Below are positions 1,358-39,708 of a stretch of DNA of 58,233 nt, piece by piece. The DNA lies in NCBI RefSeq assembly GCF_039536245.1, contig NZ_BAAAYN010000052.1, forward strand, positions 15,299 to 73,531, in the 5' to 3' direction. Origin of the DNA: Cryptosporangium minutisporangium. GTDB lineage: Bacteria; Actinomycetota; Actinomycetes; Mycobacteriales; Cryptosporangiaceae. The first letter of the stretch is position 1. Every line of letters starts with the position of its first letter. The notes below the pieces were generated by a model, which was not told the origin of the DNA, did no database searches, and saw only the letters and a list, made by a program, of their open reading frames with translations. Made by a program: the position numbers and the translations under genes.

Positions 1358-1423
1358 GTCACCGACCGTAGGGGGCAGCGCAACCCGTAGTCGGCGTTGT
1401 GCGGAGGCGCTCGCCGCGCTATG

Positions 1424-1460
1424 TTGTTCTCAGTCCGAGATATACTCATCATGAGAACAA
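1424..1460. promoter_or_regulatory. Candidate operator of the NUDIX/NrtR-like operon
   Basis: TTGTTCTC at 1424-1431 is mirrored by GAGAACAA at 1453-1460. Inside lies CTCATCATGAG (1445-1455), a dyad with a single central base. The site sits 12-48 bases upstream of the NUDIX GTG start, in the gap to the divergent glycosyltransferase. NrtR-type regulators usually bind such dyads in front of their own operon, so autoregulation is the inference. Confidence 0.5.
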
Positions 1461-1471
1461 CGGAGGCGGCG

Positions 1472-3021: not shown

Positions 3022-3048
3022 TCTCACTCCCGAAGAAGGGACACCACG

Positions 3049-22749: not shown

Positions 22750-22838
22750 GGCGGTAGCCTCGCGCCCCGCGGCGTCGCCCGCATCTCGGGATGCCTACGA
22801 TCCGTTCCGCACGCACCCGTTCCGCCACAGGGAGAGCC

Positions 22839-23792
22839 ATGGGCCGCCCGGTCTACCTGGACTGTGACACCGGTATCGACGACTCGCTCGCGATCGCCTA
22901 CCTGATGGCCCACCCGGACGTCGACCTGGTCGGCGTCGGCACGGTCTTCGGCAACATCGACGCCCACCGGGCGGCGCGGAACACGCTGGACCTGCTCGCG
23001 CTCGGGGGCCACGGCCACGTGCCGGTGGCGATCGGGGCGGAGAAGCCGCTGGCCGGCGCCTGGCTCGGCGGTCCGGCGCACATCCACGGTGGGAACGGTG
23101 TCGGGAACGTCGAGTTACCGCGTGGCGACCGCGAGCCGCTGTCCGACGAGTCGGCCGCCGACCTCCTGGTCCGGCTGGCTCACGAGCACGAGGGTGACCT
23201 CCGCGTCCTCGCGGTCGGCCCGCTGACCAACCTCGCGCGGGCCCTCGACGTCGAGACCGCGCTGCCCTACCTCGTGGAGAGCGTCGTCGTCATGGGCGGC
23301 GCGGCGCGGGTACCCGGCAACGTCACGCCGGTGGCCGAGGCCAACATCTTCAACGACCCCGAAGCCGCCGACCGGGTGCTCTCCGCCGAGTGGCCGCTGA
23401 CGCTCGTGCCGCTGGACGTGACGATGGAGCACATGATCGAGGAGGCCGACCGGGAATCGCTGCTCGCCGCCGACGTCCCGATCCCGCGTGCGCTCGGCCA
23501 GATGCTCGACGTCTACTACGAGTTCTACGTCGGGACGTTCGGTCGCCGGTGCGCGCCGCTGCACGATCCGCTCGCCGCCGCGATCACCGCCGGCGGGGCC
23601 ACCCCCTTGGTGGCCCCGACGGTGCAGGTCGTCGTCGACTCGACCGACGGTCCCGGCCGTGGCCAGACGATCTGCGACCTGCGCGGCGAGCGGGTGGGCT
23701 ACCCGGACCAACCCACCGCGCACTGCCGCCTGGTGCTCTCGCTCGACGCCCCGTTCGGCCCCCACCTCGTCGAGCGGCTCACCAGCTCCTGA
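22839..23792 (+). CDS. Nucleoside hydrolase (inosine/uridine-preferring type)
   Basis: This 317-aa enzyme cleaves the N-glycosidic bond of ribonucleosides. The calcium-binding signature DCDTGIDDSLAI lies at residues 7-18. It is followed by VGTVFGNIDAHRAARNTL, the HIHGGNGVGNVELP segment with the substrate-side residues, LAVGPLTNLARAL, VVMGGA, EANIFNDPEAA and the late calcium ligand in LHDPLAA. GGGAGAGCC precedes the ATG at 22839, which fits the family start far better than upstream GTG or ATG codons. It stands alone, in nucleoside salvage or a secondary role. Confidence 0.93.
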   Translation: MGRPVYLDCDTGIDDSLAIAYLMAHPDVDLVGVGTVFGNIDAHRAARNTLDLLALGGHGHVPVAIGAEKPLAGAWLGGPAHIHGGNGVGNVELPRGDREPLSDESAADLLVRLAHEHEGDLRVLAVGPLTNLARALDVETALPYLVESVVVMGGAARVPGNVTPVAEANIFNDPEAADRVLSAEWPLTLVPLDVTMEHMIEEADRESLLAADVPIPRALGQMLDVYYEFYVGTFGRRCAPLHDPLAAAITAGGATPLVAPTVQVVVDSTDGPGRGQTICDLRGERVGYPDQPTAHCRLVLSLDAPFGPHLVERLTSS

Positions 23793-23900: not shown

Positions 23901-25511
23901 TCACGGGATTCCGTGCCCGCTGACCCGGTCGAGCACGGCGTTCCAGTCGGTGGGTGCGGCGTCGGCGCGCCACGCGATGTGCTGGTCCGGGCGGACCAGC
24001 ACCAGGCTCCGGTCCCAGCTGGTGCGCACCGACCGATCGCCGACGACGAGATGGGCCATCGGGATGCCCCGCCGCTCCGCGGCCAGCACCAGCGGCTTTC
24101 CGGCCTCGTTCTCGGTCAGGTCGACCAGCGTGAACTGCGGGCCGAGCCGGTCGAACAGCGGCGTTCCGTCGTCCAGTCGGACCGCCGGTGCCCGGCCGCC
24201 GGTCCAGGTCGTCGGCAGTGCCCTGATTCCCGGCCCGAGCGGCGCGACGACGTCCTGGTCCTGCCAGATCACCGCGGACGTCGCGTACCGGCTGGCCAGG
24301 GCCGTGCTGAGCGCCCCGTCGGTCGGAGTCACCTCCTGCCGCAGCACGCCGGCGAGGTACTCGCGGGACGCGCCGGCCGCGGCCAGCCGCCCGAACCGCC
24401 GTCGGGTCTCCAGCTGCCGTGCCACCAGCTCCCGGTCCATCAGCGCCCGCGGACGACGTTCGGCCTCGTAACTGTCGAGCAGGCCGGGTCCGCCCCACCC
24501 GTTGACCACCGCGGCCAGCTTCCAGCCGAGGTCGACGGCGTCCTCGATGCTGGTCGCGGCGTTGTCGCCGGCCGGGTAGAACCGATGCGCCGACTCGCCG
24601 ACCAGGAACGCCGGACCGCGGCGGTACCGCCGGGCCACCGCGAGCGAGTCGTCCCACTGCCGTACGTCGAGAACCTCCGCCGACTCCAGGCGCCCACCCA
24701 GCTCGGCCCGCAGCAGCGCGATCGGGTCGGCGGTGAGGTCCCCGGACGCCAGCCGCAGGTGCCCGACCCACAGATCGCCGTCGTCCCGGTACTCCAGCGT
24801 CAGGCCGCCGACGATCAGCGTGGCGGGGTGGCGACCGTCGAACCGGCGGCTCAGCTCCGGGCTGCGGAAGTACACCGAGCAGTGCTGGACCGGAGCGCTC
24901 AGCTCCTCCATCGGCACCTGCAGGCACTGGCGGACCGTGCTCTGGGCACCGTCACAGCCGGCGAGGTACCGCGCTTCGATCGTGGTGCGCCGCCGGCCCG
25001 GTGCCGCGCCGTGCGCGAGCGCGACGGCCACGACGCGGTCGAACTCGAGCCGGGCGCCGCTGAACGTCCAGCCGAGCCGCAGGTCGATCAGCGGGTGCTG
25101 CTCGACGGCGGTACGCAGCTGGGCGGCGAGCCGCACGCCGGACACCCGCTGCGGCAGCTCCACCGGCGCACTGCCGTCCCGCACGTCCGCATAACGCCCA
25201 CGCAGCTCGTTGAGCGACGGCACGGTCGACACCAGCACCGGCGGCTCGTCGAGCGCTTGGCTCCACCCCACCTCGTCCGGGACGTCGGGTCCGACGCCCT
25301 GCGCGCGGATCGCCGCGGAGAGCCGTAGCCGCCGCAGCAGTTCCATGCTGCGGCCGTCCAGATAGTCCACGTCGGTGGTTTGCGGCGGCGTCTCCGCGCG
25401 ATCCAGCACGATGCTCGATACCCCGTGGTGCGCCAGCTCCAGTGCCAGGATCGAGCCGACCGCTCCCGCTCCTACGACCAGCACTGGTGCTCCCGGTGCG
25501 GATGTGGCCAT
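23901..25511 (-). CDS. FAD-dependent aromatic monooxygenase (PheA/TfdB/MhpA type)
   Basis: Group A flavoprotein monooxygenases hydroxylate phenolic rings with NAD(P)H and oxygen. This one (about 536 aa) has the FAD motif VVGAGAVGSILALELAHHG near residue 12, the CDGAQSTVRQ segment near 190 and LVGESAHRFYPAGDNAATS near 300. The family's GD motif (usually GDAAH) is GESAH here, an Asp-to-Glu change. A thioredoxin-like C-terminal part follows. ATG at 25511 has GGGAGGT just upstream and was preferred over ATG at 25562. It follows the LAL regulator gene in the same direction and is probably a tailoring enzyme of the neighbouring cluster. Confidence 0.88.
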   Translation of the reverse strand: MATSAPGAPVLVVGAGAVGSILALELAHHGVSSIVLDRAETPPQTTDVDYLDGRSMELLRRLRLSAAIRAQGVGPDVPDEVGWSQALDEPPVLVSTVPSLNELRGRYADVRDGSAPVELPQRVSGVRLAAQLRTAVEQHPLIDLRLGWTFSGARLEFDRVVAVALAHGAAPGRRRTTIEARYLAGCDGAQSTVRQCLQVPMEELSAPVQHCSVYFRSPELSRRFDGRHPATLIVGGLTLEYRDDGDLWVGHLRLASGDLTADPIALLRAELGGRLESAEVLDVRQWDDSLAVARRYRRGPAFLVGESAHRFYPAGDNAATSIEDAVDLGWKLAAVVNGWGGPGLLDSYEAERRPRALMDRELVARQLETRRRFGRLAAAGASREYLAGVLRQEVTPTDGALSTALASRYATSAVIWQDQDVVAPLGPGIRALPTTWTGGRAPAVRLDDGTPLFDRLGPQFTLVDLTENEAGKPLVLAAERRGIPMAHLVVGDRSVRTSWDRSLVLVRPDQHIAWRADAAPTDWNAVLDRVSGHGIP

Positions 25512-25600
25512 CGGACCTCCCCGTCGATGCCCCCGTCGATGCCCACGCGGCGGCTCCGCCACGTGTGGTCATGCTGGGGCGGCACCGACGATCGACGCCA

Positions 25601-28600
25601 TCACGTCTTTCCGTGATTCCGGCGACCGCTGGGCGGCCCCGCACCGGGATCGTCGCGGGTGCGGGCCACGAGGACCGCGGCGGCGGCGCGGTTCTGGATG
25701 CCCCATTTGGAGAAGATCTTGCGGAGGTGGCTGTCCACGGTGTGCGGCGACACGTGCAGGATCTGGGCGATCCGGTGGTTGGTCAGCCCGTCGGCGACCA
25801 GCAGCGCGACCCGCAGCTCGGCGGGGGTCAGCAGGTCCAGCGGCGACGCGGGCTCGTGGCCCGGCCCGGTGGAGGCGCCGAGAACCTGCTCCAGACGACG
25901 TCGGGCCCGGTGGGCGCCGCCCGCCCCGGTGAGCGCGTGGGCCTCCTGCCGCCACTCCCGGGCCTGTCGCGGAGCGCCGCTCAGCGCGGCGGCGTCCTCC
26001 AGCGCGGCGGCGAGCGCGAGCGGACGCGGTGACTTGCGGTAGTGCCCGATCGCGACGCGCAGCGCGCCGAGGTCCCGGCGGAGCAGCCCGTCGGTGTGGG
26101 CGGCAGCGGCGGCCAGCGCGTGCAGGCCGGCGTTCCGCTTGGCCAGGCTGTCGGTGGTTCGGACGACGATCTTGGCGCGCGCGTCGTCGCGTGCGTCGAG
26201 GGCGATCCGCAGCAGCGTCGCGGCGTTGCCCGGATTCTGTCCGATCAGGACCGGGCGGGAGGGCAGCGCGTCGTAGAGACCGGCCGCGAGGCGTAGCGCC
26301 GGGCCGGCTCCCTCGGTGGCGGCCAGGAACAGGGCCTCGGGCCAGACGACGTCCTCGGGTGCGGCGGTGATCCCGGTGTCGATCAGCGTGTGCATCCGGC
26401 CGAGGTGCTCCTCGGCGGCGGGGAGCTCGTCCCGCTCGACGGCCAGCCGGGTCAGCGTCCCGAGCAGCGGAACGGCCAGCTGGTGCGAGCCCAGCTGGGC
26501 GGCGACGGTGAGCCCGGCGTCGGCTTCGGCGGACGCGTCGTCGAGCAGGCCACGGGCGGCCAGCAGCGCCGCGCCGTAGTAGTGCCAGAGCGGCGCCGAC
26601 CAGCCGGTTCCCAACTGCGCGGACTCCTGCCGACCGCGGTCGAGGGCTCGGGCGGCGTCGGCGAACCGGTCGAGGTCGGTGTAGGCGCTGGCCAGCCAGA
26701 TCCGCGGATGCCGCAGCAGCGCCGCGCCACCGACCCGGTCAGCGGTCTCGGTCGCCTCCAGCGCGTGCCGGAGTGCCCCGTTCAGGTCACCGGTGGCCTG
26801 CGCGACGAGGCTGCGTGCGGTGCGCCCGAACACCGACGCCGCGTGCTCGCCGCAGGTCCGGCCGATCATGTCCGCCAGCTCCCCGGACCGGTCGGCGGCG
26901 TCCAGATCACCGCTGTAGACCAGCGCGTGGGCGCGGATCGCATAGAGCTGCGCGGCCAGCGCGTCGGACCCGGTGAGCTGTGCCAGACCTTGCTCGGCGT
27001 AGTCGACCGCGGTCTCGTTCTTGCCGGCGTGCTTGAACGCCTCGGCGAGGCCGAGCAGCAGCAGCGACTCGGTCTCCCGGTCCAGCCCGGCGCGGAGCGC
27101 CGTGCGGCCCAGCGCGTGTGCCTCGGTCAGCCGCCCGGCTGCGGCCAGCAGGCGAACGGCCTGCGCGACCAGCGCGCTGCGCCCCTGCCCGTGGTCGCCG
27201 AGCACCTCCAACGCGCGGACGGTCAGGTCGGCGGCGGTGCTCGGTGCGACGTCGGCGACGTCCTCGGCCGCCGCCCGCAGCATCTCGACGGCCTCTCGGC
27301 TGCCGTCCGCGCCACCGTGCAGCAGGTGCTGGGCGACCTCCATCGGCGGCCGCCCGTCGGCGCGGGCGATCGCGGCGGCCTCCCGGTGCAGCACCACGGT
27401 GATCGGCTCGCCGATCGTGCTGTACACGGCCTGCCGCACGCGCTCGTGGACGAACGTCAGCGCGCGTCCCTCGTCGACGAGGATCGCCGCGGCGGTGGCC
27501 TGCTCGACCAGCGGGACCAGGTCGGCGGCGCGCTGCCCGAGCAGCCGGGCCACCTCGTCGATCCCGAACGGGCGGTCGAACACCGACCCGGCCTGCACCA
27601 GCCGGCGGGTGCGGTCGGGCAGCTGGTCGAGGACCTGCCGGATCATCGCGACGAAGCTCGACGGCAGCGCCGTACCGACGACCGATGCGATCCCGTCGCT
27701 CACCACGAGCTGGTCGGTCACCCGTAACGACGTCATCAGCTGGGTCACCGGCAGCGGGATCCCGCCCAGCCCGTGGGCGAGCGCGAGCACGGTGCCGTCG
27801 ACCTCGGCCTCGAGCACCTGGGCGCAGAGCTCGCCCACCGCCGCGTCGGAGAGCCGCCCGAGCGTCAGTTCCTCGGCGCCTTCCCGGACCAGCCAGTGCA
27901 GCACGTGCTGACCCGGCGTGTCCGCCGGCTCCGGACGCCGGGCGAACAGCCACCGGACCGGTGAAGACGCCAGCGCGGGTACCAGTTGCCGGATCGCCAG
28001 CGCGCTGAACTCGTCGATCCAGTGTGCGTCGTCGATCGCGACGACCAGCGGCGCCACCGCGGCCCTCGTCTCCAAGACTGCGCCCAGCCGCTCCAGGATG
28101 CCGTAGTGTGGGTCGGCGTCGTCCGACAGCCAGTCGAAGGCGTCGGTCGCGGGCTCGCTGCGCCGCAGCGCGGTGGCGAGCGTGATCAGCGGGACCGCGC
28201 GGTCCAGCTCGAACGCCCGCCGGGACGCCACCGCCATCGATCGCTCGGCCGCCATCTGCACCGCGGCGCGCAGCAGGTGCGACTTACCGATCCCGGCCGG
28301 ACCACTCAGTACGAGACACCCGCCGGTGCCGCCCGCCGTGTCGACGAGCGCATGCCGCAGGGCCTCGAGTTCCCGTTCGCGACCGACCGGCGGGGTCACG
28401 CGGCCGGATGGGCGTTGTCCGCCGCGGTACGTCGCGGAGCGGCGGTTCCGGTCGTCAGTACGGTTCTCGAATGGACGGTTCTTCTCGTGAGAGGGGGGCA
28501 CACTGAGATCACCGAGGGGGTCGTCGTCCGGGTTCGCGGACGAATTGTCGTGGACGGCGTGGAGCGAGCTGAACAGCCGTTCGGGCAGCTCACGCGCGCC

Positions 28601-28678
28601 ATCTGGCGTCGGTGGGGTCGCCGACAGATGAGACGTTACCGGCCGGATGTCCGGCCGTTGACCCCCGTTTGCGGGCAT
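25601..28678 (-). CDS. LAL-type LuxR regulator with N-terminal ATPase
   Basis: This protein of up to 1025 aa has the MalT/LAL layout. An AAA/STAND ATPase lies near residues 95-350, with Walker A GPAGIGKSHLL and a Walker B-like LVVAIDDAHWID. A long TPR-like helical middle follows. The C-terminal LuxR helix-turn-helix reads LTPAELRVALLVADGLTNHR and SPHTVDSHLRKIF. LAL proteins are typical cluster-situated activators in actinomycetes. The first 90 residues look disordered and overlap the 3' end of the phzE-type gene by 89 bases. The start may therefore be lower, for example GTG at 28501. It lies between phzE-type and monooxygenase genes in one direction. Confidence 0.9.
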   Translation of the reverse strand: MPANGGQRPDIRPVTSHLSATPPTPDGARELPERLFSSLHAVHDNSSANPDDDPLGDLSVPPSHEKNRPFENRTDDRNRRSATYRGGQRPSGRVTPPVGRERELEALRHALVDTAGGTGGCLVLSGPAGIGKSHLLRAAVQMAAERSMAVASRRAFELDRAVPLITLATALRRSEPATDAFDWLSDDADPHYGILERLGAVLETRAAVAPLVVAIDDAHWIDEFSALAIRQLVPALASSPVRWLFARRPEPADTPGQHVLHWLVREGAEELTLGRLSDAAVGELCAQVLEAEVDGTVLALAHGLGGIPLPVTQLMTSLRVTDQLVVSDGIASVVGTALPSSFVAMIRQVLDQLPDRTRRLVQAGSVFDRPFGIDEVARLLGQRAADLVPLVEQATAAAILVDEGRALTFVHERVRQAVYSTIGEPITVVLHREAAAIARADGRPPMEVAQHLLHGGADGSREAVEMLRAAAEDVADVAPSTAADLTVRALEVLGDHGQGRSALVAQAVRLLAAAGRLTEAHALGRTALRAGLDRETESLLLLGLAEAFKHAGKNETAVDYAEQGLAQLTGSDALAAQLYAIRAHALVYSGDLDAADRSGELADMIGRTCGEHAASVFGRTARSLVAQATGDLNGALRHALEATETADRVGGAALLRHPRIWLASAYTDLDRFADAARALDRGRQESAQLGTGWSAPLWHYYGAALLAARGLLDDASAEADAGLTVAAQLGSHQLAVPLLGTLTRLAVERDELPAAEEHLGRMHTLIDTGITAAPEDVVWPEALFLAATEGAGPALRLAAGLYDALPSRPVLIGQNPGNAATLLRIALDARDDARAKIVVRTTDSLAKRNAGLHALAAAAAHTDGLLRRDLGALRVAIGHYRKSPRPLALAAALEDAAALSGAPRQAREWRQEAHALTGAGGAHRARRRLEQVLGASTGPGHEPASPLDLLTPAELRVALLVADGLTNHRIAQILHVSPHTVDSHLRKIFSKWGIQNRAAAAVLVARTRDDPGAGPPSGRRNHGKT

Positions 28679-30665
28679 CTGCTCCCCGGATCGGCGGATT
28701 CTCCGCCGGGCTGGTCTCGGCGATCACCGCCCGCACCAGTTCCTCGACGACGGCCGGACCGTGCTCGGTCAGGATCGACTCGACGTGGAACTGCACCGAT
28801 CGGACGCCGTACGTCGCGAGCGCCTGGACCACGCCGCTCGTCGGGTCCCGGAGCAGCCGGACCGCGCGGCCGGTGCGCGGGCAGCGCCACCGGTCGGTAC
28901 CGCTGACCGCCGCGAACGTGTGGTAGAACGCGACCCGCTCCGGCCGTCCGTGCCAGTCGATCCACCGCTGCACCCCCTGTGCGGGCCGCGGTAGCCGGTG
29001 GATCGGGAGGCCGAGCGCACCGGCCAGCACCTGGTGGCCCAGGCACACCGCCAGCACCGGTCGCCGCGCGGTCAGCAACGTCCGGGTGAGCGCGTGCAGG
29101 CGGGCGATCCGCGGCACCGCGGTGTCCCGCGGATCGCCCGGGCCCGGTCCGATCAGCACCGGATCGTGCGGCCCGAGACCGGCGAGCAGCACGTGGTCCG
29201 GCGCGGTCAACGGACGGATCCGCACGTCGGCGCCGAGTGCGCCGGCGACCGCCGCGAGCATCGCGGTGAAGTCGTCGCCGGCGTCGACGAGGAGCAGGCG
29301 CCGATCGGTCAGACCCGGTCCGGCGGTGCCGGCGCCGAGCCCTCGCCAGAAGCCGGAGAGGCCGGTGTTGCGCTGGGCGAGCGCGGCACGGATGCGGTGG
29401 CCGGGCACGGCCGCGTGCGCTGTTCCGGCGACGGGCGCTGCCCCGGCGGCGGTGCCCGCCGACCGGATCGTGCGGGTCCTCAGGGGCGGAGCCTTCGGCG
29501 CGTGACCGAACGCGGCGAGCAGCGCGGCCGCTTTCGCGCGGGTCTCGGCGGCTTCGGCCACCGGGTCGGAGTGGCGCACGAGCGTCGCGCCGACGCCGAT
29601 GGTGACTGCACCGTCGGCACGGACGTCCGCGGTCCGGATCAGCAGCGCGGAATCCAGCACACGGCGCCCGGCCCGTCGTCCGAACAGCGCGAGCGCCCCG
29701 CCGTAGTACCCGCGGCCGGTGAGCTCGTGGTCCGCGATCGCTTCGCAGGCGGCCGCCAGCGGACTGCCGGTCACGGTCGGCGCGGGCAGCGTCCGGCGGA
29801 GTACCTCCCGGACGTCGCGGGAGGTCCGCCCCTCGATCGCGTACTCGGTGTGCGTGACCCGGGACATCCGCCGCAGCCACGGGCCGCGCACCCGCGGCGG
29901 CCGGTCGCAGATCCGGGACATCGTCTTGAGTTCCTCGTCGACGACCATGAACAGTTCTTCGGTCTCTTTCCGGTCCGCGAGAAAGGCCGCCAGCTCCCGG
30001 TCCCGCGGCCCGGCGGCGGAATGCCGATACGTTCCGCTGATCGGGCTCATCGTCGCTATTCCGTCCTCGCACCGCACTTGCGCCTCGGGTGATGCGCCGA
30101 TCAGCGTCCGGCCGTTCCCGTGCACGAGAAACGTCCAGTACGCGCCGTGCTCGGTCCGGAGTAGCCGACGGAAAACCGCGAGTGCGCTGCGGTGCGACCA
30201 GCCGGGAATTCGAGCGCGGAACACGCGACGCAGCACACAATTCGACCCCACGCCGCCACCGATGTACTCGGCGACCACCCGCCGGACGGCGTCCGCGTAC
30301 TCGGCGTCCGATCGGTCGAAGCGCCCGTGCTCCGGCGCGGCACTCGACGCGTCCACCGCGTCCAGCGCGTCCACCGGGAGCGTGGTGGACGCGCGGATCG
30401 AGAGCGCGATCAGCGGCTCACCGTCGTCCACCGCCCGGAGCTCGCGCTCCGCGACCTGCCGGAACGGCACCACCGCCAGCAGGTCCGGCACCAGTTCGCC
30501 GGTGGCCCCGCCCAACTCGGGCAGCGGCAGATCCGCGAGGCTCGCCACGGCGGTGGCCTCGCCGGTGAACAACTCCAGGCGGTCGTTGCCCGCGCGGTGG
30601 AGCAGGGCGAAGGCGGGTGCGTCGTCGCGGAGCAGGCGCTCCAGATCGGGAGAGTCGGTCGTCAT
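28590..30665 (-). CDS. phzE: 2-amino-2-desoxyisochorismate (ADIC) synthase, PhzE type
   Basis: This 691-aa protein fuses an anthranilate-synthase-like chorismate domain (about 1-400) to a class I glutamine amidotransferase (about 450-660). The start LLRDDAPAFALLHR is typical of PhzE. The synthase part has SPEAQVRCEDGIATMSPISGTY, DEELKTMSRICD, TVTGSPLAAACEAIADHE and AETRAKAAALLAAFG. The amidotransferase has the Cys in AVCLGHQVLAGALG and the His-Glu pair in SVQFHVESILTEHG. PhzE turns chorismate and glutamine into ADIC without releasing anthranilate. PhzD and dehydrogenase genes in the divergent operon give the next steps. The codons agree with the ATG at 30665. Confidence 0.93.
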   Translation of the reverse strand: MTTDSPDLERLLRDDAPAFALLHRAGNDRLELFTGEATAVASLADLPLPELGGATGELVPDLLAVVPFRQVAERELRAVDDGEPLIALSIRASTTLPVDALDAVDASSAAPEHGRFDRSDAEYADAVRRVVAEYIGGGVGSNCVLRRVFRARIPGWSHRSALAVFRRLLRTEHGAYWTFLVHGNGRTLIGASPEAQVRCEDGIATMSPISGTYRHSAAGPRDRELAAFLADRKETEELFMVVDEELKTMSRICDRPPRVRGPWLRRMSRVTHTEYAIEGRTSRDVREVLRRTLPAPTVTGSPLAAACEAIADHELTGRGYYGGALALFGRRAGRRVLDSALLIRTADVRADGAVTIGVGATLVRHSDPVAEAAETRAKAAALLAAFGHAPKAPPLRTRTIRSAGTAAGAAPVAGTAHAAVPGHRIRAALAQRNTGLSGFWRGLGAGTAGPGLTDRRLLLVDAGDDFTAMLAAVAGALGADVRIRPLTAPDHVLLAGLGPHDPVLIGPGPGDPRDTAVPRIARLHALTRTLLTARRPVLAVCLGHQVLAGALGLPIHRLPRPAQGVQRWIDWHGRPERVAFYHTFAAVSGTDRWRCPRTGRAVRLLRDPTSGVVQALATYGVRSVQFHVESILTEHGPAVVEELVRAVIAETSPAENPPIRGADARKRGSTAGHPAGNVSSVGDPTDARWRA

Positions 30666-30738
30666 GGTGCGGAGCCTCTTTCGGCGAAAGGGAAACGATC
30701 CGGTCGCCGACGGTGCCGGTCCGTGATCGGCGGTCGCA

Positions 30739-30784
30739 ACTACTCGGTCGGGTAGTACGCCGCTTCCGCTACCCGGAGAGGTAG
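30739..30784. promoter_or_regulatory. Two adjacent dyads in the divergent cluster promoter
   Basis: ACTACTCG (30739-30746) and CGGGTAGT (30749-30756) form an inverted repeat with one mismatch. CTACC (30769-30773) and GGTAG (30780-30784) form a second. Both lie between phzE (start 30665) and the aldolase gene (start 30877), where one set of sites could serve both operons. Binding by one of the two LuxR-type regulators is an inference. Confidence 0.45.
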
Positions 30785-30876
30785 TGGGGCCGGAGCGCGC
30801 ACCGGATTAGCGTCCCGATCGAGAAGAGGTCGTGATTTCCGATTCCGAGAAATATCCCGAACCGAGGAGAAACACC

Positions 30877-31665
30877 GTGCCGGTGAACGATTCCTTCGCC
30901 CGCCGCATCCGATTGCAACATCTCTATCGCCGCGACTCCACCGGCCTGGTGATCGTTCCGCTCGACCACCCGGTGAGCGTCGGCCCGGCGGCCCACAGCG
31001 GACGCCTGGACCGGCTGATCGGGGAGATCGCCGACAACGGCGCGGACGCCGTCGTGCTGCACAAGGGATCGGTGCGTCAGGTCCGGCCGCGCTGGTTCCG
31101 CTCGATGTCGCTCGTCGTCCACCTGAGCGCCAGCACCGGGCTGGCCGGCGACCCGGACGCCAAGTACCTGGTGTGCGGCGTGGAGGAGGCGCTGCGCCTC
31201 GGTGCGCACGGGGTGAGCGTCCACGTGAACGTCGGATCGGCCACCGAGGCGCGGCAGATCGCCGATCTCGCGGCGGTCGCCGACGCCTGCGAGCGGTGGG
31301 GCGTGCCGCTGCTGGCGATGGTCTACGCCCGTGGACCGGCGGTCGTCGACGGCCGGGCCCCGGACGTCGTCGCGCACGCGGTGACGGTCGCCGCGGAGCT
31401 CGGTGCCGACCTGGTGAAGACCGCTCTGCCGGACTCGGCGGCCGAGGTGGCGGCGATCGTCGGGACCTGTCCGGTGCCGGTGGTGGCGGCCGGGGGAGGA
31501 TCGGCGGACCCGGAGGACACCTTCCGTCACCTGCTCACCGCGGTGCACGGGGGAGCGGGCGGCGTGGCGGCCGGGCGCCTGGTGTTCACCGCGGACGATC
31601 CGGGCGCGCGGGTCCGTCGGCTGGCCGCGCTGGTGAGCGACCGGACCGCGGCGGTGGCCCGATGA
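30877..31665 (+). CDS. DhnA-type aldolase, GriI / AroA'-like
   Basis: This protein (about 262 aa) is a class I, Schiff-base aldolase of the DhnA family. Its N-terminus (ARRIRLQHLYRRDSTGLVIVPLDHPVSVGP) matches GriI and AroA'. The Schiff-base Lys lies in GADLVKTALPDS, and VPVVAAGGGSADPE is the phosphate-binding loop. GriI joins aspartate semialdehyde and dihydroxyacetone phosphate on the way to 3-amino-4-hydroxybenzoate; AroA' makes the archaeal shikimate precursor instead. Pairing with the next gene in a biosynthetic cluster favours the GriI role. GTG at 30877 has GAGGAG upstream; GTG at 30832 would add 15 residues and has poorer spacing. Confidence 0.88.
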   Translation: MPVNDSFARRIRLQHLYRRDSTGLVIVPLDHPVSVGPAAHSGRLDRLIGEIADNGADAVVLHKGSVRQVRPRWFRSMSLVVHLSASTGLAGDPDAKYLVCGVEEALRLGAHGVSVHVNVGSATEARQIADLAAVADACERWGVPLLAMVYARGPAVVDGRAPDVVAHAVTVAAELGADLVKTALPDSAAEVAAIVGTCPVPVVAAGGGSADPEDTFRHLLTAVHGGAGGVAAGRLVFTADDPGARVRRLAALVSDRTAAVAR

Positions 31666-32858
31666 CCGCGCTGGTTCCGCCCGGCGCCGCAGATGCTCCG
31701 TCCACCGCCGTGGCCGCGGGGGGAGGTGCGCGCACCGCCGGTGCGGCCGACCGGCGGACGCAGTGCTGGCTGGATCTGCGGACCGTCGGCGATGCCGCCG
31801 GCGCCGTCCGCGACGAGGCCCTGCACGCCGGGTTCGACGCGATCCTCGCCGCCGACCCGGCCGACCTCCGCGAGCTGCCGCCGACGGTCACCCGGGTGCT
31901 CCTCCCCGAGGGGGCGGACCTGCCGTCCGACCTCGGCGCCGCCGACCTCGTCGTCGTCGTCCCGGCCGCCCACGGCGCCCGGGACCGGCTCGCCGCCGCG
32001 CACCCCGGCACGTCGTTCGGCAGCTACGTCGAGGTCACCGACGCCGACACCCTCGCAGCCGCGTGCGCCAGCGCACGCCGCGACCCCTGCACGGTGCTCC
32101 GCTTCCGCGACCCGACGAACATCCCGCTGGAGATCGTGCTCGCCGCGGCCGCCGACGCCGACCGCCTCGTGGTCACCGTCGTCGGCGACGCGGAGGAAGC
32201 GGCGATCCACGCCGACGTGCTGGAGCACGGCCCCGGAGCGGTGCTGCTCGCCCCCTCCCGGCCGGGCGAGGCGACCCGGCTCGTGGAGGCGGTCCGGCGT
32301 CGCTCACCCGACCTGACGCTCTCCACGTTCACGGTCACCGGCATCACCCACATCGGAGCCGGTGAGCGGGCCTGCGTCGACACCTGCACCTACCTCCGCC
32401 AGGACGAAGGCATTCTGGTCGGCTCCCGGGCCCGGGCACTCGTGCTCTGCGTCAGCGAAACGCACCCGCTGCCGTACATGCCCACCCGCCCGTTCCGGGT
32501 CAACGCCGGGGCGGTGATGTCCTACACGCTGGCCGACGTCGAACGCACCCGGTACCTGAGTGAGCTCCGGGCCGGCGACACGGTGCTGGCGGTCGGCGCG
32601 GACGGCCGCACCCGGCGCGTACCGGTCGGACGGGTGAAGATCGAGACCCGGCCACTGCTCTCGATCGACGCGGTGGCCGACTGCGGTGAGCCGGTCAACC
32701 TGATCGTCCAGGACGACTGGCACGTGCGCATCCTGGGCCCGGGGGCGCGCGTCCTCAACTCCACGGCGCTCCGCCCGGGCGACCAGCTCCTCGGCTACCT
32801 GCCCGAACGGGCGCGGCACGTCGGGTACGCGATCGACGAGCTGTGCCACGAGTTATGA
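31662..32858 (+). CDS. 3-dehydroquinate synthase II-like, GriH / AroB'-like
   Basis: This 398-aa protein belongs to the DHQ-synthase-II family. Conserved parts are LRFRDPTNIPLEIVLA, ITHIGAGERACVDTCTYL, EGILVGSRARALVLCVSETH, RPFRVNAGAVMSYTL, ERTRYLSELRAGD and VGRVKIETRPLLSIDA. AroB' makes dehydroquinate from the archaeal C7 amino sugar. GriH cyclises the GriI product to 3-amino-4-hydroxybenzoate. The first 35 residues are Ala/Gly-rich and poorly conserved. ATGA overlap with the aldolase gene fixes the start at 31662 and implies translational coupling. The organism should own a normal shikimate pathway, so a GriH role is more likely. Confidence 0.87.
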   Translation: MTALVPPGAADAPSTAVAAGGGARTAGAADRRTQCWLDLRTVGDAAGAVRDEALHAGFDAILAADPADLRELPPTVTRVLLPEGADLPSDLGAADLVVVVPAAHGARDRLAAAHPGTSFGSYVEVTDADTLAAACASARRDPCTVLRFRDPTNIPLEIVLAAAADADRLVVTVVGDAEEAAIHADVLEHGPGAVLLAPSRPGEATRLVEAVRRRSPDLTLSTFTVTGITHIGAGERACVDTCTYLRQDEGILVGSRARALVLCVSETHPLPYMPTRPFRVNAGAVMSYTLADVERTRYLSELRAGDTVLAVGADGRTRRVPVGRVKIETRPLLSIDAVADCGEPVNLIVQDDWHVRILGPGARVLNSTALRPGDQLLGYLPERARHVGYAIDELCHEL

Positions 32859-33634
32859 GCGCCGTCGACTTCCACGCCCGGCTGCCGCCCGCCGCCGGGG
32901 CCCGTGACGACCTGCTGCGGGTCATGGACGACCTCGGAATCGGCCGGGCTGCGGTGTCCGCCGGTGGGCTGGTGGACCTGGATCGGCTCTCCGAGCTCGT
33001 CGGGGCCGGCGCCGGTCGATCCGCCCACCGCGGCGGACGGTCAGCGGTTCGGCCCGTCGCGGACAACGACTTCGTGCTCCGCAACACGCACCGCAGCGGC
33101 GGGCGCCTGCTGCCGTTCTTCTTCGCCGATCCGGCGACCGACGTGGCCGCCTACGCCGCCGAGGCGCCGAGCTACCGCGGCCTGGAGATCTCCCCGGCAG
33201 TGCACGGGGTGCGGCTCGACGATCCGGGTGTTCGTGCGCTGGTGGCCACTGCGGAAGCGGCTCGCCACCCGGTGTACGTGGTCTGTCTGGGCCGGCCCGG
33301 TACCCGCGCCGCCGACCTGGTGACGCTCGCCCGGGCGTTCCCGGCCGTGGACTTCGTCTTCGGACACTGTGGCTTCACCGGGCTGGACGTACGCGGCCTC
33401 GCCACGATCGCGCCGCAGCCGAACATCGTGGCCGAGACGTCCGGCTGCTTCACCGCGGTGGCCCGGCTGGCGCTGCACCGGCTCGGCCCGGACCGAGTGC
33501 TGTTCGGCACCGAGTACCCGCTGCAGCACCCCCGGGTGGAGCTGGCCAAGCTCGCCGCCCTCGACCTCGCCCCGGCCGTTCTCCGCAAAGTCACGTCGGA
33601 GAACGCGCTCCGCCTGCTCGGAGAGGAGACCTGA
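32855..33634 (+). CDS. Amidohydrolase-2 family protein (benzoxazole-cyclase-like)
   Basis: This 259-aa TIM-barrel protein belongs to the amidohydrolase-2 group. In benzoxazole clusters (nataxazole NatAM, A33853 BomN, as I recall them) such an enzyme closes the oxazole ring instead of hydrolysing an amide. The metal sites look changed: the usual DxHxH start is VDFHARL, keeping one His. GHCG (about 168-171) keeps the barrel His, and the late GSDxP is GTEYP, an Asp-to-Glu change. The start overlaps the GriH-like stop (ATGA). A role in cyclisation is inferred from the neighbours, which include an acyl-activating enzyme directly downstream. Confidence 0.8.
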   Translation: MSAVDFHARLPPAAGARDDLLRVMDDLGIGRAAVSAGGLVDLDRLSELVGAGAGRSAHRGGRSAVRPVADNDFVLRNTHRSGGRLLPFFFADPATDVAAYAAEAPSYRGLEISPAVHGVRLDDPGVRALVATAEAARHPVYVVCLGRPGTRAADLVTLARAFPAVDFVFGHCGFTGLDVRGLATIAPQPNIVAETSGCFTAVARLALHRLGPDRVLFGTEYPLQHPRVELAKLAALDLAPAVLRKVTSENALRLLGEET

Positions 33635-34908
33635 ATGACCACCACGCTGCCGGAGATCGGGGACTGGTCCTCGTTCGCCGACCTCGCCCGGCTCCAGGAC
33701 GCCCGGCTCGACGCCGTGCTCGCGGCCGCCGCCCGATCGCCGTTCTACCAGCGCCGGGGTGTCCCGTACGAGCTGGCCCTGGCACCGCTCACCACCACGA
33801 CCGATTTACGGGACGCCTACCCGTTCGGCCTGCTCGCGGTCGACCGCGCCCAGTTGGCCACCTACCACGAGTCCAGCGGCAGCAGCGGCGAGCCGACGGC
33901 GTCGTACTACACCGCGGCGGACTGGGACGACCTCGCCGGACGCTTCGCCCGCAAGTGGACCGGGATCCATTCGCAGGACACCTTCCTGGTGCGGACGCCG
34001 TACGCGCTGATGATCACCGGGCACCTCGCGCACGCCGCGGCCCGTCGTGCCGGTGCGACCGTCGTACCGGCGGACAACCGGTCGCTCGCGATGCCCTACG
34101 CGCGGCTGATCCGCGTGCTGCACGATCTCGACGTCACGGTGACCTGGTCGCTGCCGACCGAGACGCTGCTCTGGGTCGCCGCCGCGCGGCTGGCCGGGTA
34201 CGAGCCGGGTCGCGACTTTCCGGCCCTCCGGGCGTTGTTCGTGGCCGGGGAGCCGCTGAGCGCGGCCCGGCGGGCACGCATCGCGGCACTGTGGGGCGTC
34301 CCGGTCGTCGAGGAGTACGGCGCCACCGAGGTCGGCAGCCTGGCCGGCGTCTGCCCGCACGGGCGCCTGCACCTGTGGGCGGACCGGGCGATCGTCGAGG
34401 TGCACGACCCGGCCACCGGACAGATCAAACCGGACGGACGGGGCCGCCTCGTCGTCACGCCGCTCCACCGCGAGGCGATGCCGCTGCTGCGTTACGAGCT
34501 GGCGGACGAGGTCGAGGTCTCCTACCGGCCCTGTGCCTGCGGCTGGTGGCTGCCGGACGTACGGGTGCTGGGCCGGGCCGGCTCGGGCTATCGAGGGCTC
34601 ACCCAGCTTGGCCTGGAGGAGATCGTCTTCTCGCTCCCCGCCGAGCTCGGCGTCCTGTTCTGGCGGGCCCGCTTCGACGGGACACGGCTCACCGTCCAGA
34701 TCGAGGTCGCCGACCGGTACCGGGCCGCGGCGACGGAAGCGCTGGCGGTCGCGATCGGCGCCGCCTTCGACCTGGAGGTGACCGTGACCGCGGTGCCGCC
34801 GGGTGGCCTGGTGCCGGTCGAGCTGCTGACCGCCGCGCCGGACGTGCTGAAGCCGCGAATGCTGTTCGGCCCGGGTGAGTCCTGGGGCGCGGCCCACCGG
34901 TACTACTG

Positions 34909-34909
<1 letters not shown>
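33635..34909 (+). CDS. PaaK-like acyl-activating (adenylate-forming) enzyme
   Basis: This 424-aa ANL-superfamily protein resembles phenylacetate-CoA ligases. It should activate an aromatic carboxylate with ATP as acyl-adenylate or CoA ester. Motifs are the Ser/Gly/Thr loop ESSGSSGEPTASYYT (about 71-85), the adenine-side VVEEYGATEVGSLAG (about 224-238), RLVVTPLHREAMPLLRYELAD (in parts, about 270-290) and a C-terminal Lys in PDVLKPRMLFG. The ATG follows the amidohydrolase stop directly with GGAGAGGAG upstream. In benzoxazole pathways this class (NatL2, BomJ) activates 3-hydroxyanthranilate or its partner acid. The natural acid here is likely an aminohydroxybenzoate. Confidence 0.85.
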
Positions 34910-35694
<785 letters not shown>

Positions 35695-35710
35695 GAGAGA
35701 GGACTGTCCG

Positions 35711-36355
35711 GTGCCGATACCGTCGATCGCGTCGTACGCCATGCCGACCGCCGCCGAGCTGACCGAGGGCCCGGCGGGATGGCGGCCGGATCCGGCGCGC
35801 GCCGCGCTGCTCGTCCACGACATGCAGGGCTACTTCCTGGACTTCTTCCCGCCCGGGCAGTCGCCCACCACCGAGCTGCTCACGAACGTCCGCCGACTGA
35901 AGGACGCGGCGAGGACTCTCGGCATGCCGGTGATCCACACCGCGCAGCCGGGGCGGATGACGCCGGCCGCCCGCGGGCTGCTGCAGGACCTCTGGGGCCC
36001 CGGCATGACCGACGACCCACGGGCCACGGACATCGTGCCCGCGGTCGCGCCCGCACCGAGCGACACCGTGCTCACCAAGTACCGGTACAGCGCGTTCCAC
36101 CGGACGACGCTCGCCGCCGACCTCGCCGTCGCCGGGCGCGACCAGCTGGTCGTCTGCGGGGTGTTCGCCCACATCGGCTGCCTGCTCACCGCCGCCGACG
36201 CGTACGCCAACGACGTCCAGCCCTTCCTGGTCGCGGACGCGGTCGCGGACTTCAGCGCGGAGGAGCACCGGATGGCGCTCTGGTACGCCGCGCGCCGATG
36301 CGCCGCCACCCCGACGACCGACCAGGTCCTGAGCGCGCTCGAGGTCACGCCGTGA
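35711..36355 (+). CDS. phzD: Isochorismatase, PhzD type
   Basis: This protein (about 214 aa) follows PhzD almost throughout. It opens IPSIASYAMPTAAEL, with the catalytic Asp in LLVHDMQGYFLDF (about 38-50) and the Lys in LTKYRYSAFHRT (about 123). The segment CGVFAHIGCLLTAADAY has Ala-His-Ile where hydrolytic relatives keep another arrangement. PhzD removes pyruvate from ADIC, giving 2,3-dihydro-3-hydroxyanthranilate. There is no C-terminal aryl-carrier domain, unlike EntB. GTG at 35711 has GAGAGAGGA upstream, 16 bases after the SDR stop. It closes the plus-strand operon and converges on the second LuxR gene with an 11-base overlap. Confidence 0.92.
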   Translation: MPIPSIASYAMPTAAELTEGPAGWRPDPARAALLVHDMQGYFLDFFPPGQSPTTELLTNVRRLKDAARTLGMPVIHTAQPGRMTPAARGLLQDLWGPGMTDDPRATDIVPAVAPAPSDTVLTKYRYSAFHRTTLAADLAVAGRDQLVVCGVFAHIGCLLTAADAYANDVQPFLVADAVADFSAEEHRMALWYAARRCAATPTTDQVLSALEVTP

Positions 36356-37574
36356 CCGGGCCGTCGTCCGGGCCGGTGTGGTCGCGGGCGAGCCGGGCCA
36401 GCTCGACCCGCGAGGTGAGGTCGAGCTTCCGGAAGATCTGCCGCAGGTGGTAGTTGACCGTGTGCGGCGAGCGGCCGATGCGGCGGGCGATCTGCTGGTT
36501 GGTCAGCGCGCAGCCGACCAGCACCGCGATCTGCCGCTCCTGCTCGGTCAGCCCGCGCCAGTCCGGAGCCGGTCGGTCCGGCCCGGAGGCCCGTGCCGGA
36601 CCTCCGGGCGCCGGGCGGGGGCGACGCGACGCGCGCTCGTCACGGAGGGCCACCCGCACCGAGCGGGGTAGTGACTCCTCGACGGTCGCCCGCACCAGCT
36701 CGTGCCGGAACACCAAGTCCTCGTCCACCCCGATCACCAGGCCGGAGGCGAGCGCCTCGTCCACCGCGGGCACCAGCGCGGCAGCGTTGCGGTGCAGCAG
36801 CCCGGCCAGCTCACGGAGCCCGAAGCGCTGCCCGATCGTGGCGGCAACCTGCACCAGGTGGCGGGCCGGTGGCGACAGCGCGGCCAGCGTCGCGTCCAGC
36901 TGGGCTCGGATCCGCGCAGGCAGACGGATCGCGACGACGCCTGCGCGGCCGGCGTCGACCCGTAACAGGCGCTCCTCCCGCAGACCGGTGACGAGGTCCT
37001 GAACGGCCTGCGGATTCCCGGCGGCCACCGCGCTCAACGCGCGCAGTTCGGCGTCAGGCGCTCCGCCGGCGAGCGCCGTGAGCAGCGTGGCCACCGCCGA
37101 CGGCGTCAGCGGTTCGAGCACCACCCGGTGCAGACCGGCCTGGGTCACCTGCTCCGGCTCCGGCCAGGTCGCACCGCTCCGCCGGACGAGCACGACCAGC
37201 ACCGGCACGGTCCGGGCGATCGCCTCCAGCTCCGGCCACACCCGCGGGTGGATCCACTGCGGATGCTCACAGGTCAGCAGGCGAGGCACGATCGCACCCG
37301 GCGAGGCGTCGGCGGGCCCGTCGGCCGCGACGATCCGCCACATCCCGCTGCCGTCGATCCAATCCGCCTCGCGAACCGTCGCCGCTCCCCGTCGGCGGGC
37401 CGTGGTGACGAACTCCTGGAGCAGCCTGCTCTTCCCGCTGCCGCGGGGTCCCTCGATCACCGCCAGCGTCAACCGGCCGGCCGCCGTCCGGTCCAGGAGA
37501 TCACGGAGTTGTCGCTGCTCGCGGCCCCTACCCACGAGCGCCGGGAACCCGGGGTGACGTCGATCCCCCTGCAC
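36345..37574 (-). CDS. Short LuxR-family regulator with ATPase domain
   Basis: This 409-aa protein has Walker A GPRGSGKSRLL near residue 42 and a short helical sensor. Its C-terminal LuxR helix-turn-helix (GLTEQERQIAVLVGCALTNQ, then IARRIGRSPHTVNYHLRQIF) lies at about 335-395. It looks like a LAL protein with the TPR section removed, which is less than half the usual length. It converges on phzD with an 11-base overlap of coding ends. With the full-size LAL at 25601 the cluster has two related regulators, so a paired or antagonistic control is possible. The ATG region lacks an obvious Shine-Dalgarno. Confidence 0.88.
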   Translation of the reverse strand: MQGDRRHPGFPALVGRGREQRQLRDLLDRTAAGRLTLAVIEGPRGSGKSRLLQEFVTTARRRGAATVREADWIDGSGMWRIVAADGPADASPGAIVPRLLTCEHPQWIHPRVWPELEAIARTVPVLVVLVRRSGATWPEPEQVTQAGLHRVVLEPLTPSAVATLLTALAGGAPDAELRALSAVAAGNPQAVQDLVTGLREERLLRVDAGRAGVVAIRLPARIRAQLDATLAALSPPARHLVQVAATIGQRFGLRELAGLLHRNAAALVPAVDEALASGLVIGVDEDLVFRHELVRATVEESLPRSVRVALRDERASRRPRPAPGGPARASGPDRPAPDWRGLTEQERQIAVLVGCALTNQQIARRIGRSPHTVNYHLRQIFRKLDLTSRVELARLARDHTGPDDGPVTA

Positions 37575-38973: not shown

Positions 38974-39708
38974 GTGGACGAGTTCGACGGCGCGGAGCTG
39001 AACACCGACCTGTGGTTGCCGCACTACCTACCGGCGTGGAGTTCGCGGGCGGAGACCCGGGCGTCGTACACGCTGGCCGATTCGTGCCTTCGCCTCTCGG
39101 TACCGGCCGATCAGGGCCTGTGGTGCGCCGACGACCACACGCCGCCGATGCGGGTGTCGGGCGTGCAGTCCGGGAACTGGTCGGGGCCGGTCGGCAGCAC
39201 CCGGGGCCAGCAGCCGTACCGGGACGGGCTCGCCGTCCGGGAGGAGCAGCCGCCGTTCCAGGGCTGGCTGCCGATCGGCGGGCGCCTGGAGATGCGGGCC
39301 CGGATGGTGCTGGGGCCGACGTCGATGGCGGCGTGGTGGCTGGTCGGCTTCGAGGACGTGCCGTCGCGGTGCGCCGAGATCTGCGTGGCCGAGGTTTTCG
39401 GGAGTGCGGTGGTGCCGGGGGAGTCGGCGGAGGTCGGCATGGGACTGCACGCCTTCCGTGATCCGGCGGCACGCGAGGACTTCGCCGCGCCCCGGCTGCC
39501 GATCGACGTCGCCGAGTTCCACACGTACGCGGTCGACTGGACGCACGAGCGGGTGGTGTTCTCGGTCGACGGCGCGGTCGTCCGGGAGTGCGCCGGGCCA
39601 CCGTGGTACCCGATGCAGCACATGCTCGCGGTGTTCGACTTCCCGGACGGCTCGGACGACGCGGGCCCGCCCCCCGAACTCGTCGTCGACTACCTCCGCG
39701 CGGAGTGA
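38974..39708 (+). CDS. GH16-like concanavalin-fold protein, catalytic Asp replaced
   Basis: This 244-aa protein starts with GTG and opens DEFDGAELNTDLWLPHYLPAW, the normal GH16 (beta-glucanase-like) beginning. The family's active site is ExDxxE. Here it reads EICVAE (about 136-141): both flanking Glu stay but the central Asp is Cys. Other landmarks are GGRLEMRARM, AAWWLVGFED, FHTYAVDWTHERVVFSVDG and HMLAVFDF. There is no signal peptide, unlike secreted glucanases. It may be a sugar-binding or poorly active relative acting inside the cell. It stands alone. Confidence 0.75.
   Translation: MDEFDGAELNTDLWLPHYLPAWSSRAETRASYTLADSCLRLSVPADQGLWCADDHTPPMRVSGVQSGNWSGPVGSTRGQQPYRDGLAVREEQPPFQGWLPIGGRLEMRARMVLGPTSMAAWWLVGFEDVPSRCAEICVAEVFGSAVVPGESAEVGMGLHAFRDPAAREDFAAPRLPIDVAEFHTYAVDWTHERVVFSVDGAVVRECAGPPWYPMQHMLAVFDFPDGSDDAGPPPELVVDYLRAE

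What the first reader, a model, noticed from the sequence alone, without database searches (positions are those of the whole stretch)
23901..37574. Compact cluster that joins two aminophenol pathways, predicted hybrid benzoxazole product
PhzE-, PhzD- and DHHA-dehydrogenase-type genes give 3-hydroxyanthranilate from chorismate. GriI/GriH-type genes in the same operon give 3-amino-4-hydroxybenzoate from aspartate semialdehyde and DHAP. Both are ortho-aminophenol acids. A PaaK-like activating enzyme and a ring-closing-type amidohydrolase are set between the two pathway halves. The simplest product is an ester/amide between the two acids, cyclised to an aryl-benzoxazole carboxylate, then hydroxylated by the FAD enzyme. 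No PKS, NRPS, methyltransferase or dedicated exporter is present, so the product should be small. Known benzoxazole clusters I recall use one of these building blocks; the combination in one operon is striking. I cannot exclude that a related hybrid has been published.
Basis: partly seen in the sequence, partly recalled or inferred. Interest (0 to 1): 0.92.

Follow-up and report, generated by a model that had tools for sequence, protein, structure and literature searches.

The report
Two-pathway gene cluster, likely hybrid benzoxazole
A compact bacterial gene cluster carries two routes to two different aminophenol acids and one enzyme that could couple them, so it probably makes a small mixed ring compound whose product is still unknown; the same arrangement recurs in related soil bacteria.

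Summary
PhzE, PhzD and a DhbA-type dehydrogenase form the chorismate/DHHA route to 3-hydroxyanthranilate (3-HAA). The aldolase and DHQS-II score best with bacterial 3,4-AHBA models, and the genome keeps ordinary type-I DHQ synthase. The only ligase among the ten is a full-length NatL2/AjiA1-type benzoxazole ligase. The amidohydrolase (AMH) is not NatAM-like: it belongs to PF04909, and 38 of 40 sequences have lost two of the three canonical zinc histidines while keeping a likely catalytic His and an acid. The arrangement is not unique: 27 of 83 loci (all fetched through DHQS-II) link both routes. Best reading: an apparently uncharacterised family of hybrid 3-HAA/3,4-AHBA benzoxazole clusters. 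Not settled: which acid is activated; whether AMH closes the ring; whether the product is a hybrid (13 loci have ligase and AMH without linked 3-HAA genes, though 9 of those genomes carry an unlinked PhzE-PhzD pair). The suggested mass test cannot discriminate, because 3-HAA and 3,4-AHBA are isomers. My searches listed no such hybrid in print, but the founding closoxazole paper could not be read.

The parts
23901..25511 (-). FMO: FAD monooxygenase with Rng_hyd_C, candidate aromatic hydroxylase for late tailoring
   Evidence: PF01494 170.5 bits, PF21274 39.9; NCBIfam PRK06126.1 349.5 bits, below cut-off 445
25601..28678 (-). LuxR1: large ATPase-LuxR regulator; true start may lie inside
   Evidence: PF13191 + PF00196
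28590..30665 (-). PhzE: ADIC synthase, chorismate-binding plus glutamine amidotransferase domains
   Evidence: residues 9-647 to PhzE 3r74, E 1e-145, next best 1.2e-21
30666..30831 (.). 166-bp divergent intergenic region between the PhzE unit and the GriI unit
   Evidence: coordinates; promoters not tested
30832..31665 (+). GriI-type DhnA aldolase (aspartate semialdehyde + DHAP)
   Evidence: BagB_FevI 310.9 bits (cut-off 500, not met) against TIGR01949 242 (cut-off 299.45, not met)
31662..32858 (+). GriH-type 3,4-AHBA synthase (DHQS-II)
   Evidence: PF01959 339.6 bits; NF002625 494 bits (cut-off 375, met), BagC_FevH 476.1 (cut-off 750, not met), other DHQS-II models 226.3 or less
32843..33634 (+). 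AMH: PF04909 amidohydrolase, proposed ring-closing enzyme, zinc ligands altered (H11, R13, V147, H175, E224)
   Evidence: AlphaFold2 pLDDT 92.8
33635..34909 (+). LIG: NatL2/AjiA1-type AMP ligase
   Evidence: AjiA1 6wuq E 3e-155, NatL2 6siw 3e-152, 9s3l (ClxA) 8e-48; active-site residues
34909..35694 (+). SDR: DhbA/Lim4-type dehydrogenase, DHHA to 3-HAA
   Evidence: TIGR04316 336.4 bits, cut-off 300 met
35711..36355 (+). PhzD: ADIC hydrolase giving DHHA (GTG start)
   Evidence: PhzD 1nf9 E 6e-66 ahead of isochorismatase 2fq1 3e-58
36345..37574 (-). LuxR2: ATPase-LuxR regulator
   Evidence: PF00196, PF13191

Best explanation
The cluster makes a hybrid benzoxazole. Supported by homology: GriI and GriH give 3,4-AHBA; PhzE, PhzD and SDR give 3-HAA; LIG is a benzoxazole-type ligase. 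Inferred: LIG adenylates one of the acids and esterifies it with the ortho-aminophenol hydroxyl of the other, as NatL2 does and PfxC is argued to do; AMH catches the ester before it rearranges to the amide and closes the ring by attack of the amine and loss of water. With 3,4-AHBA as donor the product would be 2-(3-amino-4-hydroxyphenyl)benzoxazole-4-carboxylate; with 3-HAA as donor, 2-(2-amino-3-hydroxyphenyl)benzoxazole-5-carboxylate (both C14H10N2O4, 270.06 Da). FMO may then hydroxylate it.
For: Both routes complete; the chorismate/DHHA route was shown to DHHA for limazepine enzymes and listed there for calcimycin, caboxamycin and A33853 (passages of PMC5958127). LIG is full-length kin of NatL2/AjiA1 and keeps Glu235, Tyr236, Thr239, Asp299, Lys418 and the structural zinc Cys248/His254/Cys308/Cys310 (roles from PMC7204872 section 7, and PMC12519233 passages). 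It is the only AMP-binding protein among the ten, so a dimer is expected and the 3-HAA genes have no other obvious consumer in the cluster. The linkage recurs: 25 of 83 loci have all six of GriI, GriH, LIG, AMH, PhzE, PhzD; 27 counting L027 (PhzE and a partial SDR at a contig end, no PhzD found in its draft genome) and L043. In none of the 83 do PhzE/PhzD occur without LIG and AMH. PfxC/PfxB precedent for ligase plus amidohydrolase.
Against: 13 of 83 loci have LIG and AMH without linked PhzE/PhzD, and in 10 of these 13 the compared ligase pocket residues (Asn155, Glu235, Thr239, Ser243) are as in most hybrids; L013, L033 and L083 differ. So the pair may work on 3,4-AHBA alone. Weakening this: 9 of the 13 genomes have a PhzD match next to a PhzE match elsewhere, 2 have a PhzD match without PhzE beside it, 2 (G007, G008) have no PhzD at E 1e-25; such unlinked pairs may serve other pathways. 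AMH lacks two of three canonical zinc histidines and its nearest folds are decarboxylases. The SDR was not found (E 1e-8) in 7 of 27 hybrid loci. The window LIG has Thr where NatL2 has Lys62, as has sister L084. All 83 loci were fetched through DHQS-II or are its kin, so ligases without GriI/GriH were not sampled. A tree-based test of AMH/3-HAA linkage had only 3 supported pairs and says nothing.
Confidence: 0.58

Rival explanations
1. Homodimer rival: LIG and AMH build the 3,4-AHBA homodimer benzoxazole, as in closoxazole, and 3-HAA is used otherwise (shunt, third unit by a ligase elsewhere, cap).
For: 13 of 83 loci have LIG+AMH with no linked PhzE/PhzD; G007 and G008 have no PhzD at E 1e-25; the compared LIG pocket residues do not separate 10 of these 13 from the hybrids.
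Against: Closoxazole pathways use a second AMP ligase for the third unit and this cluster has one; PhzE is kept with LIG and AMH in 27 loci of several families; 9 of the 13 genomes have an unlinked PhzE-PhzD pair that could supply 3-HAA.
Confidence: 0.2
2. No benzoxazole: AMH is a decarboxylase or a relic and the end product is an ester/amide or an o-aminophenol derivative, perhaps oxidised to a phenoxazinone.
For: The 50 AMH fold neighbours listed are mostly PF04909-type decarboxylases; zinc ligands altered.
Against: H175 and E198 are kept in 40 of 40 and E224 in 39 of 40, which argues against a relic; the decarboxylases are metal enzymes with the same lost ligands (recalled); no phenoxazinone-synthase-type family was matched among the ten proteins.
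Confidence: 0.15
3. 3-HAA homodimer (A33853/microechmycin core) with 3,4-AHBA as a separate product.
For: LIG is closest in the PDB to the 3-HAA ligases NatL2/AjiA1.
Against: In the ligase tree the 3-HAA genes come and go (7 changes) while GriI/GriH stay, though loci were chosen by GriH kinship, so this is partly built in; a BagE/FevW-type ligase of the same family uses 3,4-AHBA.
Confidence: 0.07

Closest known systems
Closoxazole clusters (clx, Clostridium cavendishii; pfx, Pyxidicoccus fallax)
   Same: 3,4-AHBA synthase pair, PaaK-like ligase, an amidohydrolase said to be distant from NatAM (18.4%)
   Different: two ligases, no 3-HAA genes in the five-gene set described; this LIG is much nearer to NatL2 than to ClxA. 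ClxD/PfxB could not be compared with AMH
Nataxazole, A33853, caboxamycin and microechmycin clusters (and the ligase AjiA1)
   Same: chorismate/DHHA or BomOPQ-type route to 3-HAA (A33853, caboxamycin; microechmycin) and the NatL2/AjiA1-type ligase
   Different: NatAM homologues are named for nataxazole, A33853 and caboxamycin, AMH is not of that type; no GriI/GriH pair is described in the passages I read
Bagremycin/ferroverdin clusters
   Same: GriI/GriH pair and a BagE/FevW-like ligase (542.4 bits)
   Different: BagE_FevW cut-off 800 not met; the partner there is p-vinylphenol; no AMH, PhzE or PhzD match in the six L038-type loci

Membership tests
Chorismate/DHHA 3-HAA pathway | PhzE-type ADIC synthase, PhzD-type hydrolase, DhbA/Lim4-type dehydrogenase together | tested here: met
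GriI/GriH 3,4-AHBA pair | bacterial rather than archaeal aldolase/DHQS-II, with an ordinary DHQ synthase also present | tested here: met
   HMM scores; strict Bag/Fev cut-offs not reached and no tree with archaeal sequences built
NatL2/AjiA1 benzoxazole ligase | full-length similarity incl. C-terminal extension with Lys418, Glu235, structural zinc ligands | tested here: met
   Lys62 is Thr in the window
NatL2/AjiA1 benzoxazole ligase | uses 3-HAA as acyl donor | not testable with these tools
   Glu235 is shared with BagE/FevW-type ligases
NatAM condensing amidohydrolase | sequence similarity and about 490 residues | tested here: not met
   263 aa; none of the 4 PDB sequences at E up to 1 is NatAM; none in the 50 listed of 1625 Foldseek matches
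NatAM condensing amidohydrolase | zinc bound by three His (75, 77, 253) with Asp345 near | tested here: not met
   HxH is HxR, strand-5 His is Val, Asp is Glu (NatAM site); correspondence of positions by family alignment, not by superposition
ClxD/PfxB condensing amidohydrolase | sequence similarity to ClxD or PfxB | not testable with these tools
   neither sequence was available
Closoxazole cluster | two AMP ligases | tested here: not met
   one AMP-binding protein among ten
Bagremycin/ferroverdin synthetase BagE/FevW | NF041217 score of 800 or more | tested here: not met
   542.4; L038 reaches 920.6

The most novel reading that the evidence does not exclude
A recurrent, uncharacterised natural-product family in which a NatL2-type ligase joins 3-HAA to 3,4-AHBA hetero-selectively and a metal-free member of the amidohydrolase superfamily closes the benzoxazole, the zinc of NatAM having been replaced by an Arg/His/Glu site.
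Probability: 0.27. Interest if true: 0.78.

Novelty: new variant of a known kind. Interest (0 to 1): 0.56.

Why it matters
Benzoxazoles are a drug scaffold. A single-ligase cluster that makes both ortho-aminophenol acids offers a compact, testable route to mixed aryl-benzoxazole carboxylates and a natural model for hetero-selective coupling. The altered metal site of AMH makes the question 'does enzymatic benzoxazole closure need zinc?' directly testable with a 263-residue enzyme and natural controls (L033 and L083 keep the histidines).

Tried and rejected
Rejected: archaeal shikimate variant. Rejected: uniqueness of the combination. Rejected: reading the donor acid from Glu235 or position 243; Glu235 is shared by NatL2 and the six L038-type loci, and position 243 is Thr in NatL2, Asn in ClxA, Ser or Thr in the hybrids, Pro in the L038 type. 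Tried without result: AMH in plasmids, no match; AMH profile over 396 Actinomycetota genomes, 2 matches, the window's own and one distant canonical amidohydrolase, L132, with only 6 candidates scored in the genomes shown; independent-pairs test of AMH against PhzE/PhzD, no power; ten paper searches listed no hybrid. Not tested: kynurenine route to 3-HAA in any genome. The second structure job was not used.
Full report
Setting. The window is contig C52:15299-73531 of an unnamed 9.2-Mb genome. Four other genomes were listed for its family, three of them in its genus; from size and GC I guess Cryptosporangium, which is recalled and untested.

Gene content. Ten genes lie at 23,901-37,574 as described. 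PhzE, LuxR1 and FMO run on the minus strand; GriI, GriH, AMH, LIG, SDR and PhzD run on the plus strand and overlap or nearly abut (GriI/GriH overlap 4 bases; LIG/SDR 1 base); LuxR2 is on the minus strand. So there are two divergent units, not one operon.

3-HAA route. PhzE matches Burkholderia PhzE 3r74 over nearly its whole length (E 1e-145; next 1.2e-21; the species is recalled). PhzD matches PhzD 1nf9 (6e-66) ahead of isochorismatases (2fq1 3e-58), a modest margin. The SDR passes the DhbA model (336.4 against 300). Homologues of the trio serve limazepine biosynthesis and were listed there for calcimycin, caboxamycin and A33853 (passages of PMC5958127; in the passages I saw, the PhzE and PhzD steps were shown in vitro, the dehydrogenase step was proposed). 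No kynurenine-pathway search was made here.

3,4-AHBA route. The aldolase scores 310.9 with BagB_FevI and 242 with TIGR01949; DHQS-II scores 494 with NF002625, 476.1 with BagC_FevH and 226.3 or less with the other DHQS-II models. Neither reaches the strict Bag/Fev cut-offs (500 and 750). The genome has two type-I DHQ-synthase matches, so DHQS-II is not needed as its shikimate enzyme.

Ligase. LIG is kin of AjiA1 (520.7 bits) and NatL2 (510.8), far above 9s3l (166.7). That 9s3l is ClxA is inferred: residue numbers given in PMC12519233 (passages) match that chain. LIG keeps Glu235, Tyr236, Thr239, Asp299, Lys418 and the four zinc ligands of NatL2 (roles from PMC7204872 section 7). Against full conservation, Lys62 is Thr in the window and in sister L084. 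The paper's Arg68 did not fall on an Arg in my numbering and was left out. Glu235 contacts the 3-hydroxyl of 3-HAA in NatL2, but the BagE/FevW-type ligase L038 (920.6, passes 800) keeps it too, and bagremycin is made from 3,4-AHBA as the acid (passages of PMC6692506). The donor is therefore undecided.

Amidohydrolase. AMH (263 aa) matched four PDB sequences at E up to 1, none of them NatAM. Its AlphaFold2 model (pLDDT 92.8, pTM 0.91) is nearest to PF04909-type decarboxylases and, by TM-score, to uncharacterised amidohydrolases such as 3cjp and 3irs; NatAM is not among the 50 listed of 1625 matches. Across 40 sequences (window plus 39 loci): H11 40, position 13 Arg 38 and His 2, position 147 Val 37, Ala 1 and His 2, H175 40, E198 40, E224 39 and Asp 1. 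The two with His at both 13 and 147 are L033 and L083; L033 is 50% identical to the window protein, and the distant canonical L132 has the usual HxH, His, His, Asp pattern. By analogy with NatAM (zinc by His75, His77, His253, Asp345 near; His290 needed; PMC7204872 section 9), two of three zinc histidines are gone while a likely catalytic His and an acid remain. The mapping of H175 to His290, E224 to Asp345 and E198 to Glu321 is inference; no metal was modelled.

Distribution. The scan for DHQS-II kin found 407 relatives in genome contigs and kept the best 80. With two sister genomes and the window that makes 83 loci, all chosen through DHQS-II, at E 1e-8 within the fetched stretch: all six of GriI, GriH, LIG, AMH, PhzE, PhzD in 25; LIG and AMH without PhzE/PhzD in 14; LIG without AMH and PhzE/PhzD in 12; neither LIG nor AMH in 31; and L027, on a short contig, all but PhzD (no PhzD was found in its draft genome either). 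For L043 the genes were found on contig C6 of its genome just past the 10-kb flank (identity of the contigs inferred from coordinates). I count 27 hybrids and 13 AMH-only. Some loci are cut by contig ends, so absences there are weak. Of the 13 AMH-only genomes, 9 have a PhzD match next to a PhzE match elsewhere (with an SDR beside it in L086/L113, L110, L112, L114, L122), 2 have a PhzD match without PhzE beside it (L117, L120) and 2 (G007, G008) have none at E 1e-25; whether those unlinked pairs serve these clusters is unknown. The SDR is missing (E 1e-8) in 7 of 27 hybrids: L004, L005, L006, L008, L010, L011, L021, which leaves their last 3-HAA step unexplained. On a ligase tree of 52 rows plus NatL2 the hybrid state needs 7 changes (shuffled mean 17.7) and occurs in Micromonosporaceae, Pseudonocardiaceae, Nocardiaceae, Streptomycetaceae, Thermomonosporaceae and the window's family; deep forks are weakly supported. 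Old linkage with repeated loss is my reading, not a test result. In an even draw of 396 Actinomycetota genomes only the window's own has a close AMH, so the family looks rare overall; that search scored few candidates per genome.

Window-specific feature. A 3-hydroxybenzoate-6-hydroxylase-like FAD enzyme (f2) sits between LIG and SDR in both sisters (L084, L085), and f2 is found in 25 of 27 hybrids; it is missing in the window and in L045 (its place next to LIG was looked up for six loci). The best match elsewhere in the window's genome is 36% identical to the L084 enzyme (43%'s aligner), against 56% between the sisters. The window's product may therefore be less oxidised than its relatives'. 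An aspartokinase gene (f6) is matched in many relatives, placed before GriI in several, which fits aspartate-semialdehyde supply; the window has no f6 match at E 1e-8. Five relatives (L035, L041, L055, L060, L064) carry a gene (f33) that I take by eye for an aromatic prenyltransferase; NCBIfam gave no match.

Mechanism. Shown elsewhere: NatL2 makes an ester that rearranges to an amide unless NatAM closes the ring (PMC7204872 abstract and sections 7 and 9); the same is argued for PfxC/PfxB (PMC12118335 parts 1 and 2); an amide was reported for ClxA/ClxD. Here the hetero-coupling, the ring closure and the hydroxylation are inferred. Hybrid, 3-HAA homodimer and 3,4-AHBA homodimer are isomers, so mass alone cannot tell them apart; the closoxazole benzoxazole intermediate has m/z 271.07.

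Literature. Ten searches listed no cluster or product that combines both acids in a benzoxazole. Seen: parts 1-2 of 6 of PMC12118335 plus passages, part 1 of 4 of PMC9864271, passages of PMC12519233, PMC6692506, PMC11429834 and PMC5958127, abstract and sections 7 and 9 of PMC7204872; all else only as search listings. The founding closoxazole paper (10.1002/anie.202205409), which by PMC12118335 reported related clusters in several phyla, is not held and may already show this organisation.

Verdict. A real cluster of a recurrent and apparently uncharacterised kind: new variant of a known kind, with an unexplained and testable metal site.

Noticed in passing
1397-5375 (+): A divergent adenylosuccinate-synthetase homologue (208.5 bits Pfam; 166.1 in NCBIfam against a cut-off of 402) follows a Nudix/NrtR-type regulator, a weakly kinase-like protein and a protein with no Pfam match; looks like a separate small cassette.
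   Followed up: partly
34909; L084:12298-13428: A FAD monooxygenase gene present between LIG and SDR in both sister species is absent in the window.
   Followed up: yes
L033:11137-11904 and L083:11094-11858: The only two amidohydrolases of 40 that keep His at both altered positions; their ligases also have a distinct pocket, with Asp for Glu235.
   Followed up: partly
L004, L005, L006, L008, L010, L011, L021: Hybrid loci with PhzE and PhzD but no detectable DHHA dehydrogenase at E 1e-8.
   Followed up: no
L035:915-1955, also L041, L055, L060, L064: A putative aromatic prenyltransferase (by eye, no model match) near the benzoxazole-type genes hints at prenylated products in these relatives.
   Followed up: no
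22791-23792: A nucleoside-hydrolase-like flank gene (name by eye) is kept in all three other same-genus genomes, including G003, which has no DHQS-II and no match to the downstream flank gene 38974-39708; the site may show gain or loss of the cluster.
   Followed up: partly
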